DNA of 64,000 nucleotides, from NCBI RefSeq assembly GCF_900215515.1, contig NZ_OBEI01000002.1:62001-126000 (forward strand). The letters run 5' to 3'. Source of the stretch: Persephonella hydrogeniphila. Its GTDB lineage: Bacteria > Aquificota > Aquificia > Aquificales > Hydrogenothermaceae. Below the pieces are notes generated by a model. It searched no databases. It was given only the letters and a program-made list of their open reading frames with translations, and had not been told where the DNA came from. The translations under genes and the position numbers were made by a program. Of this stretch, positions 33,308-35,179 are shown one piece after another (position 1 is the first letter of the stretch; every line of letters begins with the position of its first letter).

Positions 33308-34390
33308 ATGCTTGACCTGATTGCTGTACTTTCTGTTGCCGTCGCTCTGTTTTTTGTAATAAAAAGCCTGAGAAAAAGAAAAAATGGTAAATGTGACAAA
33401 TGCACATCTGCATTACTATCTTTTCTGATTCTAAGCTCTGTTCAGGCACAGGAAGTCCAGAAACCTTTTATTCTTGAACATAAACTGCATAAACACAGAG
33501 TAGATTTTGTTAACTCAACTGTTTATCAGCAGATAAAAGAGTACGGCACAGTTTACAACACTTCCCATATATTCCTCACAGTAGATTTTTCAGAAACCGA
33601 TGAGATTTTTATAAATGGCTCTGTTTCCTTTGGAAATGGCCTGAAGAAAAAACTCCAGCAGAGAGAATATTCTATTTCAACAACAGCAGATGATCTTGAA
33701 GAATATCTGAAAGACATAAATGGAACAGGAAGAAAATATCTCCTTGAGATGTTTTACCAGAAAAAAATAAAAAATCTGCTCATCATAGGAGGACTGATAG
33801 ACGCTGCTTCATTTACAGATGCCAATAGATACGCAAATGATGAGCACACCCAGTTTTTAAACGATATGTTCGTAAACAATCCGATAGCTTCCATTCCCTC
33901 TTATAACTTTGGAAGCTATATCAGATACAACCTTGACGGCAAAATAGGTTTATCTGGTGTGTACATACAGAACAAACCAGACAAAGGAAATACCGGAATT
34001 TTAGAGATAGAATTTGAAACAGAGAATTTTTCTGTAAGACCTTATTACTTTTATGTTTTCGGAGGAGAAGAGTTCAAAGGATTTGGTATATCGGCAGATT
34101 ATGCCTTTAATGAGAATTTTGGTATATTTTTCAGAGGAGGAAACTCAAACAGAGATTACAACTACTTCGTATCTGCAGGATTTGAGAAAAAAAGGATAAT
34201 CACACAGGACAAAATAGGAGTGGGTATAGGCCAGATGAAAGGAAAATCAGGAGTTAAAGATATTTCTGCCTGCGAGTGTTATTATACTGTAGCAGTTGAT
34301 AAGCATCTTTCAATTTCTGGAGACATACAGTACATAAAAGAAAAAAAAGAAGATATAGTCTTCGGAGGTAGAATCTTCTTTTCCTATTAG
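33308..34390 (+). CDS. Porin-like outer-membrane protein preceded by a Cys-rich membrane segment
   Basis: The 360-residue protein starts with a hydrophobic helix (residues 2-20), a basic stretch KSLRKRKNGK and a CxxC (Cys34/Cys37 in GKCDKCT). This looks like FeoB-associated Cys-rich membrane proteins. A second hydrophobic stretch ending VQAQE follows, like an ordinary signal peptide cleaved near residue 54. The remainder is beta-strand-rich with alternating aromatic residues and ends RIFFSY, a porin-type C-terminus. There is no alternative ATG, GTG or TTG between the two parts, and GAGGTGA precedes the ATG, so the joined form is probably real. It lies behind the Fur-like operator, suggesting iron regulation. 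Confidence 0.75.
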   Translation: MLDLIAVLSVAVALFFVIKSLRKRKNGKCDKCTSALLSFLILSSVQAQEVQKPFILEHKLHKHRVDFVNSTVYQQIKEYGTVYNTSHIFLTVDFSETDEIFINGSVSFGNGLKKKLQQREYSISTTADDLEEYLKDINGTGRKYLLEMFYQKKIKNLLIIGGLIDAASFTDANRYANDEHTQFLNDMFVNNPIASIPSYNFGSYIRYNLDGKIGLSGVYIQNKPDKGNTGILEIEFETENFSVRPYYFYVFGGEEFKGFGISADYAFNENFGIFFRGGNSNRDYNYFVSAGFEKKRIITQDKIGVGIGQMKGKSGVKDISACECYYTVAVDKHLSISGDIQYIKEKKEDIVFGGRIFFSY

Positions 34391-34393
34391 TTT

Positions 34394-34564
34394 CTATCCG
34401 AAGATTTTCAGTTCTACAACTCTTTTTTTGCATCTCTTACACTTTGCATCAAGAATACCAACGTTTCTGGAGACGATGATCACTTCATTTTGAAGATTTT
34501 TACACCTTGGACACTCTACTCTGACAGTCTCAAATCTGATGTCAATCTCTTTTGTCTTTTCCAA
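34394..34564 (-). CDS. 56-residue zinc-ribbon microprotein
   Basis: On the minus strand, TTG at 34564 opens a 56-codon frame ending TAG at 34394. It has two CxxC knuckles, Cys18-Pro-Arg-Cys21 and Cys42-Lys-Arg-Cys45, 20 residues apart, in a beta-rich basic context: a classic zinc ribbon. AAGGAGGTG lies 6 nt before the TTG and is an almost perfect Shine-Dalgarno. The gene is downstream of the flavodoxin gene on the same strand (84 nt away) and converges with the porin (3 nt gap). A nucleic-acid or protein-contact role is likely. Confidence 0.8.
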   Translation of the reverse strand: MEKTKEIDIRFETVRVECPRCKNLQNEVIIVSRNVGILDAKCKRCKKRVVELKIFG

Positions 34565-34567
34565 TCT

Positions 34568-34615
34568 ACTCACCTCCTTTAATTTTATTTTCTACCTATA
34601 TCTTAGGAGGTGAGT
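34568..34615 (-). promoter_or_regulatory. Leader stem-loop that would sequester the zinc-ribbon ribosome binding site
   Basis: On the minus strand, ACTCACCTCCT (34615-34605) is perfectly complementary to AGGAGGTGAGT (34578-34568), which contains the Shine-Dalgarno of the zinc-ribbon gene. The loop is 26 nt and AT-rich. A TATTAT at 34627-34622 could place a transcription start at the very 5' arm. This looks like an on/off translational switch, such as an RNA thermometer or a ligand- or protein-responsive leader. Confidence 0.6.
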
Positions 34616-34648
34616 GTTAAGATAATATGAAGATTCAGTTAAGTTATT

Positions 34649-35179
34649 TTAATCTTTTAGCTTTTCTCTATACTCTTTCTTCCCATCAACATATATAAGA
34701 ACCCACTGGGCGAGCCTTTCCCCTAATCTCTCACATGCTTTTATCTCTTCTTCTTTTCTCGGCTCCCCTGCACAAACCGCTCCATAATGCAATGTAAACT
34801 TATCTCCTGTATAATCGGTAACTCCAAAAACAAGAAATCCATAATTCATAAGCATCGTTAAAATAGACATACAGGCAACCTCATTTCCTCCTCCCCATCC
34901 GCCTGATGATGAAAAGGCACATCCTATTTTTCCGTCTATCTCTCCCCACAGATCAACAATACTATCCCAGAATTTTTTCATCTTCCACGACATCACACCA
35001 AGGTATGTAGGACTTCCTACAGCTATCCCATCACACCAGAGGATATCCTCCTTTGAGGCTTCATCAACAGATTTAAGCCTGACCTCAACAGGAAATTTTG
35101 AGGCTCCTTTTGCTACATACTCTGCCATTTTTTTAGTGTGCCCTGTTTCCGAATCATACAGAACAAGAACTTTTCCCAT
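34649..35179 (-). CDS. Flavodoxin-fold NAD(P)H-dependent oxidoreductase / flavodoxin (WrbA-like)
   Basis: The 176-residue cytoplasmic protein has the flavodoxin FMN-phosphate loop YDSETGHTKKMA at residues 8-19. Other flavodoxin features are AVGSPTYLGVMSWKMKKFWD and FSSSGGWGGGNE around the isoalloxazine-binding loops. It resembles the WrbA/flavodoxin group of quinone reductases or electron carriers. GGGAGGG precedes the start. Its neighbours (zinc ribbon, flavin module) do not fix the role. Confidence 0.85.
   Translation of the reverse strand: MGKVLVLYDSETGHTKKMAEYVAKGASKFPVEVRLKSVDEASKEDILWCDGIAVGSPTYLGVMSWKMKKFWDSIVDLWGEIDGKIGCAFSSSGGWGGGNEVACMSILTMLMNYGFLVFGVTDYTGDKFTLHYGAVCAGEPRKEEEIKACERLGERLAQWVLIYVDGKKEYREKLKD

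What the first reader, a model, noticed from the sequence alone, without database searches (positions are those of the whole stretch)
34394..34627. Zinc-ribbon microprotein with a leader that exactly hides its Shine-Dalgarno
The leader segment ACTCACCTCCT is a perfect 11-nt complement of AGGAGGTGAGT, which holds the ribosome binding site, with a 26-nt AT-rich loop. Chance occurrence at this place is unlikely. The layout fits an RNA thermometer or a protein- or metal-responsive translational switch, possibly autoregulated by the zinc-ribbon protein. The gene was missed by a 60-residue cutoff.
Basis: seen in the sequence. Interest (0 to 1): 0.65.

Follow-up and report, generated by a model that had tools for sequence, protein, structure and literature searches.

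The report
Hairpin silencing read-through of phosphate-promoter gene
In a heat-loving Persephonella-like bacterium, a tiny zinc-binding-protein gene seems to be insulated from its upstream neighbour: RNA running in from next door folds up and hides the ribosome site, while RNA from the gene's own phosphate-starvation promoter starts too late to contain the blocking half.

Summary
On the minus strand, ACTCACCTCCT (34615-34605) is a perfect 11-nt complement of AGGAGGTGAGT (34578-34568), which contains the Shine-Dalgarno (SD) of a 56-residue zinc ribbon. The hairpin is found in five genomes of the genus (this one included) and three of another genus, with compensatory changes.

The thermometer or metal-switch interpretation is not supported. 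Directly upstream is a triple 11-bp Pho-box-type promoter with a -10 exactly 10 nt downstream. The 5' arm is that spacer plus the first base of the -10. RNA from this promoter should start inside the loop and lack the 5' arm. Only RNA reading through from the abutting flavodoxin gene carries both arms. Predicted SD accessibility at 70 C is about 0.2-2% in read-through RNA and about 96% in own-promoter RNA. The hairpin does not melt by 80 C.

Across the protein family, 8 of 9 loci whose upstream co-directional gene abuts the promoter have the strong hairpin. None of 22 with a divergent or distant neighbour has it. The arm's register differs between the genera, suggesting independent origins.

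Best reading: a read-through-insulating, SD-hiding hairpin built into a phosphate promoter, working like phage T4 gene e or Bacillus sigG. No transcript data exist here.

The parts
34394..34564 (-). Zinc-ribbon microprotein gene (TTG start at 34564, 56 aa, stop 34396-34394); GTG at 34573 is a less likely alternative start
   Evidence: homologues with ATG at the aligned position; predicted 4-strand fold, mean pLDDT 91
34568..34578 (-). 3' arm AGGAGGTGAGT containing the Shine-Dalgarno
34579..34604 (-). 26-nt loop; contains the rest of the -10 and the predicted transcription start (about 34594-34592, inferred)
34605..34615 (-). 5' arm ACTCACCTCCT: equals the 10-nt promoter spacer plus the first T of the -10
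34600..34605 (-). -10 element TAAGAT (TANNNT in homologues)
34616..34643 (-). Pho-box-like triple 11-bp direct repeat CTTAACTGAAT CTTCATATTAT CTTAAC
   Evidence: zero-mismatch match; 36 hits in 41 family genomes against 0 backwards controls
34649..35179 (-). Upstream co-directional flavodoxin / WrbA-like gene, stop 5 nt before the Pho box; presumed source of read-through RNA
   Evidence: no terminator found between it and the microprotein gene

Best explanation
The inverted repeat is a read-through insulator. The zinc-ribbon gene has its own phosphate-starvation promoter: three 11-bp Pho-box repeats, a 10-nt spacer, then the -10. This promoter is squeezed against the stop codon of a flavodoxin gene, with no room for a terminator. 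The spacer has been shaped into an exact complement of the gene's SD. RNA polymerase running on from the flavodoxin gene makes a long RNA in which the spacer pairs with the SD and translation is blocked. When phosphate is scarce, a PhoB-like regulator starts transcription inside the hairpin loop. That short RNA lacks the 5' arm and is translated. Shown by sequence: arms, conservation, covariation, promoter geometry, and association with an abutting upstream gene. Computed: SD accessibility of the two RNAs. Inferred: the transcription start, the read-through, phosphate control, and the translational block itself.
For: (1) The Pho-box/-10 pattern matches with 0 mismatches here. One of the two next best sites in the genome, at 1 mismatch, heads a porin-like gene followed by pstS-pstC-pstA-pstB-phoU-like genes and a histidine kinase. 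(2) The same pattern gives 36 hits and 0 control hits in 41 family genomes, 12 of them before this gene and 7 before porin-like genes. The -10 sits 10 nt after the box in 17 homologues, with or without a hairpin. (3) In all 8 hairpin genomes the 5' arm lies in that spacer, in one genus also overlapping the last Pho repeat, so the promoter's RNA would lack it. (4) Covariation. (5) Strong hairpin in 8 of 9 loci with an upstream co-directional stop -5 to +5 nt from the box, and in 0 of 22 others; nominal Fisher p = 1.1e-6, or 4e-4 for Pho-box loci only. (6) The upstream gene differs between genera (flavodoxin or OmpH-like), and the arm register relative to the box differs by 4 nt, suggesting two origins. 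(7) Folding: read-through RNA 0.2-2% accessible, own-promoter RNA 96% at 70 C. (8) No terminator between the genes. (9) Phage T4 gene e and B. subtilis sigG have the same layout.
Against: No RNA data: neither the start site nor read-through was observed. The Pho box is recognised by sequence only, and the best PhoB-like regulator scores below the PhoB cut-off. One abutting locus (G022, L094) lacks the hairpin. The 8 positives belong to two genera, so the p-values ignore shared ancestry. One distant-neighbour locus (G063) still folds to 1.3% SD accessibility through a wobble-containing helix. In the second genus the modelled short RNA is only 48-68% accessible at 70 C.
Confidence: 0.74

Rival explanations
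1. RNA thermometer: the leader hairpin melts on warming and exposes the SD.
For: The SD is fully paired in an RNA containing both arms.
Against: The helix stays closed from 37 to 80 C (0.6-4% accessible). The 5' arm lies upstream of the predicted start. The hairpin is missing from relatives without an abutting upstream gene.
Confidence: 0.03
2. Metal- or protein-responsive translational switch, possibly autoregulated by the zinc ribbon.
For: The protein is predicted to bind zinc, and small RNA-binding proteins can autoregulate (general knowledge).
Against: The helix is plain and perfect with a non-conserved loop (13-26 nt within the genus), and no Rfam family matches above gathering. Most relatives of the protein, including the paralogue in the same genome, lack the hairpin.
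Confidence: 0.06
3. DNA-level operator: the inverted repeat binds a repressor or second regulator overlapping the promoter.
For: Arms flank the -10 and predicted start site; compensatory changes also preserve a palindrome.
Against: Arm spacing varies (loops of 13, 25 and 26 nt within one genus). Outer pairs differ between close relatives, unlike a fixed operator. The 3' half always coincides with the SD.
Confidence: 0.08
4. The hairpin mainly serves the upstream gene, as an mRNA 3'-end stabiliser or Rho-type stop, and hides the SD incidentally.
For: It is tied to an abutting upstream gene and lies within about 40 nt of that gene's stop codon.
Against: No U-tract follows and no terminator is called there. 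It would be a coincidence that the helix always pairs exactly with the SD.
Confidence: 0.08

Closest known systems
Bacteriophage T4 gene e (also soc, 49, I-TevI) early/late transcript control (PMC3014915)
   Same: Long upstream-initiated RNAs fold to hide the ribosome site; the gene's own promoter lies within the region encoding the 5' strand, so its RNA escapes.
   Different: Phage late promoter rather than a Pho-box promoter; demonstrated experimentally there (about 100-fold), only inferred here.
Bacillus subtilis sigG large read-through hairpin (PMC5942855, citing Masuda et al. 1988)
   Same: Chromosomal gene; the hairpin is proposed to block translation of read-through from the upstream spoIIG operon and cannot form in own-promoter RNA.
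   Different: Helix of more than 20 bp and sporulation promoter; here 11 bp, phosphate-type promoter, and recurrence tied to gene adjacency across genera.
IS10 transposase protection from outside transcription (from memory; not checked in a paper here)
   Same: Read-through RNA folds to hide the transposase ribosome site; RNA from the inner promoter does not.
   Different: Mobile element end; not a host gene with a phosphate-type promoter.

Membership tests
Read-through-specific SD occlusion (T4 gene e / sigG type) | Upstream RNA can form a helix covering the SD | tested here: met
Read-through-specific SD occlusion (T4 gene e / sigG type) | The gene's own promoter starts RNA inside the structure, so its RNA lacks the 5' arm | tested here: inconclusive
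   Promoter geometry says so, but no start site was mapped.
Read-through-specific SD occlusion (T4 gene e / sigG type) | A co-directional upstream gene without a terminator in between | tested here: met
Read-through-specific SD occlusion (T4 gene e / sigG type) | The long RNA is made but not translated | not testable with these tools
   Needs RNA and reporter data.
RNA thermometer | Helix melts within the physiological temperature range | tested here: not met
   In silico, 2-4% SD accessibility at 70-80 C
Pho regulon member | Tandem 11-bp direct repeats shared with phosphate-uptake genes | tested here: met
   11-nt repeat definition from PMC4415409
Pho regulon member | Binding by a PhoB-type regulator and induction by phosphate limitation | not testable with these tools
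   A PhoB-like regulator exists but scores below the PhoB cut-off.
Known curated RNA family (Rfam) | Match above the gathering score | tested here: not met

The most novel reading that the evidence does not exclude
Anti-Shine-Dalgarno sequences embedded in promoter spacers are a recurrent, selectable insulation device in compact genomes, arising repeatedly whenever a regulated promoter is pushed against an upstream gene with no room for a terminator.
Probability: 0.25. Interest if true: 0.6.

Novelty: new member of a known kind. Interest (0 to 1): 0.42.

Why it matters
If true, it shows how a compact thermophile keeps a phosphate-starvation gene silent despite transcription from next door, without a terminator: the promoter spacer doubles as an anti-Shine-Dalgarno. 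The presence or loss of the hairpin with gene adjacency makes a natural experiment for a mechanism known mainly from single cases in phages, insertion sequences and sigG. It also warns that a perfect SD-hiding hairpin in a genome need not be a switch on the gene's own mRNA.

Tried and rejected
Thermometer: rejected by stability from 37 to 80 C and promoter geometry. Known riboswitch or leader: Rfam gave no match above gathering (best a sub-threshold CRISPR-repeat hit). Intrinsic terminator: no U-tract; the only terminator-like call lies inside the flavodoxin coding sequence. A plus-strand gene using the complementary AGGAGGTGAGT: no conserved ORF seen by eye. Other CACCTCC...GGAGGTG sites in the family genomes mostly lie elsewhere or inside coding sequence and do not form a class. 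Alignment A1 was too diverse for the locus search, and a viral search found no relatives. Known protein family: only sub-threshold Pfam and NCBIfam zinc-ribbon hits; weak PDB matches (best by sequence E 0.008; best fold Tim15, E 0.28). Papers on Persephonella phosphate starvation: none held.

Full report
WHAT IS THERE. The gene lies on the minus strand. Reading 5' to 3': a flavodoxin/WrbA-like gene (35179-34649), five bases, a triple 11-bp repeat CTTAACTGAAT CTTCATATTAT CTTAAC (34643-34616), the 10-nt spacer ACTCACCTCC (34615-34606), a -10-like TAAGAT (34605-34600), an A+T-rich stretch, AGGAGGTGAGT (34578-34568), and a 56-residue zinc-ribbon ORF from TTG 34564 to stop 34394. The 5' arm is the promoter spacer plus the first base of the -10.

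CHANCE AND CONSERVATION. The exact repeat is unique in the 2-Mb genome. A shorter motif (CACCTCC...GGAGGTG) occurs once, and so does its backwards control, so the motif alone would not be convincing. Five genomes of the genus, this one included, have the helix (9-12 Watson-Crick pairs), as do three of a second genus (7-10). Named contigs matching two of the same-genus loci are Persephonella MAGs. In the eight-sequence alignment 95.3% of cells pair. Three pairs change on both sides (A-U to U-A; A-U, C-G, U-A and U-G; U-A to A-U). The covariation score of 0.240 exceeds all 500 shuffles (mean 0.068) and every slid control. Eight sequences from two genera is a small set.

THE PROMOTER. The pattern YTTMAY-N5-YTTMAY-N5-YTTMAY-N10-TANNNT matches here without mismatch. 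The next best sites in the genome have one mismatch; one of these (C1:398214) heads a porin-like gene followed by PstS-like, PstC, a second permease, ATPase, PhoU and a histidine kinase. The porin-like label is by eye; Pfam gave no match for that protein. Over 41 genomes of the taxonomic family, a slightly stricter pattern gives 36 hits against 0 for the reversed pattern. Downstream genes are the zinc ribbon (12), porin-like proteins (7), a pyruvate-kinase-like gene (2) and others. Pho boxes are tandem 11-nt repeats whose letters vary between species (PMC4415409), so this is a Pho-box-like promoter by sequence and by association. Regulator binding is inferred; the best PhoB-like regulator scores 246 bits against a cut-off of 296.

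WHY THE HAIRPIN IS NOT IN THE GENE'S OWN mRNA. With the -10 at 34605-34600, transcription should start near 34593, inside the loop. The 5' arm would then be absent. In all eight hairpin genomes the arm occupies the box-to--10 spacer; in the second genus it also takes in the last bases of the box. Relative to the box the core ACCTCC is shifted by 4 nt between the genera, which suggests that the hairpin arose twice. Modelled SD accessibility is 0.6% (37 C) and 2.4% (70 C) in RNA from upstream, but 88% and 96% in RNA from the predicted start. The helix remains closed at 80 C. That argues against a thermometer in an organism that (from general knowledge of Persephonella) grows near 70 C.

THE NATURAL EXPERIMENT. 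Among family members with enough sequence, the strong hairpin (SD accessibility 0.8% or less at 70 C) is present in 8 of 9 loci where a co-directional gene ends within about 5 nt of the promoter. It is absent in all 22 where the neighbour is divergent or at least 100 nt away (Fisher p = 1.1e-6, or 4e-4 for Pho-box loci only; both ignore shared ancestry). In the second genus, three species with the OmpH-like gene abutting have the hairpin. Three sister species with a 330-530-nt gap keep the Pho box and SD but have a decayed arm (ACCCTCTG, GCCTTCTG, ACCCTATG). One of those (G063) still folds to 1.3% accessibility through a wobble-containing helix. One abutting locus (G022) has no hairpin. The upstream genes differ between the genera, so the link is to adjacency, not to flavodoxin. 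The window genome's own paralogue (L118), with the same SD but a divergent neighbour, has no hairpin.

INTERPRETATION. The layout is that of read-through-specific SD occlusion. In phage T4 gene e, long early RNAs hide the ribosome site and late RNAs starting within the structure do not (PMC3014915). In B. subtilis sigG, a hairpin is proposed to block read-through from spoIIG and cannot form in own-promoter RNA (PMC5942855). Here it would keep a phosphate-starvation microprotein off while its neighbour is transcribed. Start site, read-through, phosphate control and translational block are inferred, not shown.

THE PROTEIN. It belongs to a family of 55-65-residue proteins found in 31 of 41 genomes of this taxonomic family and essentially nowhere else in the phylum (one marginal hit). 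Invariant residues include four cysteines. The predicted fold is four strands, pLDDT 91; the best fold match, the Tim15 zinc ribbon, is weak. Its biochemical role is unknown; a phosphate-starvation role is inferred from the promoter.

Noticed in passing
L027, L028, L105, L109, L110, L116-L118: A second paralogue of the zinc ribbon sits beside a divergent gene resembling S-adenosylmethionine decarboxylase (by eye) and carries a differently conserved leader (GGTTAATAAAAACTAACTAAAGGAGG in several genomes) with no Pho box.
   Followed up: partly
L068, L070 (position 1501): A Pho-box-like promoter precedes a pyruvate-kinase-like gene in another genus of the same family, an unusual candidate Pho regulon member.
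   Followed up: no
L092 (position 1501): A Pho-box-like promoter precedes a 174-residue protein; its first 110 residues gave no Pfam match.
   Followed up: no
window 33308-34390 (+): A porin-like gene (OprB Pfam match) ends only a few bases from the microprotein gene, convergently; the pairing is kept in the genus.
   Followed up: no
L050 (match at 1501): Another SD-hiding repeat (CACCTCCTAAAAACTTCCTTAGGAGGTG) directly precedes the start of a 300-residue ORF in genome G023; its upstream neighbour was not examined.
   Followed up: no
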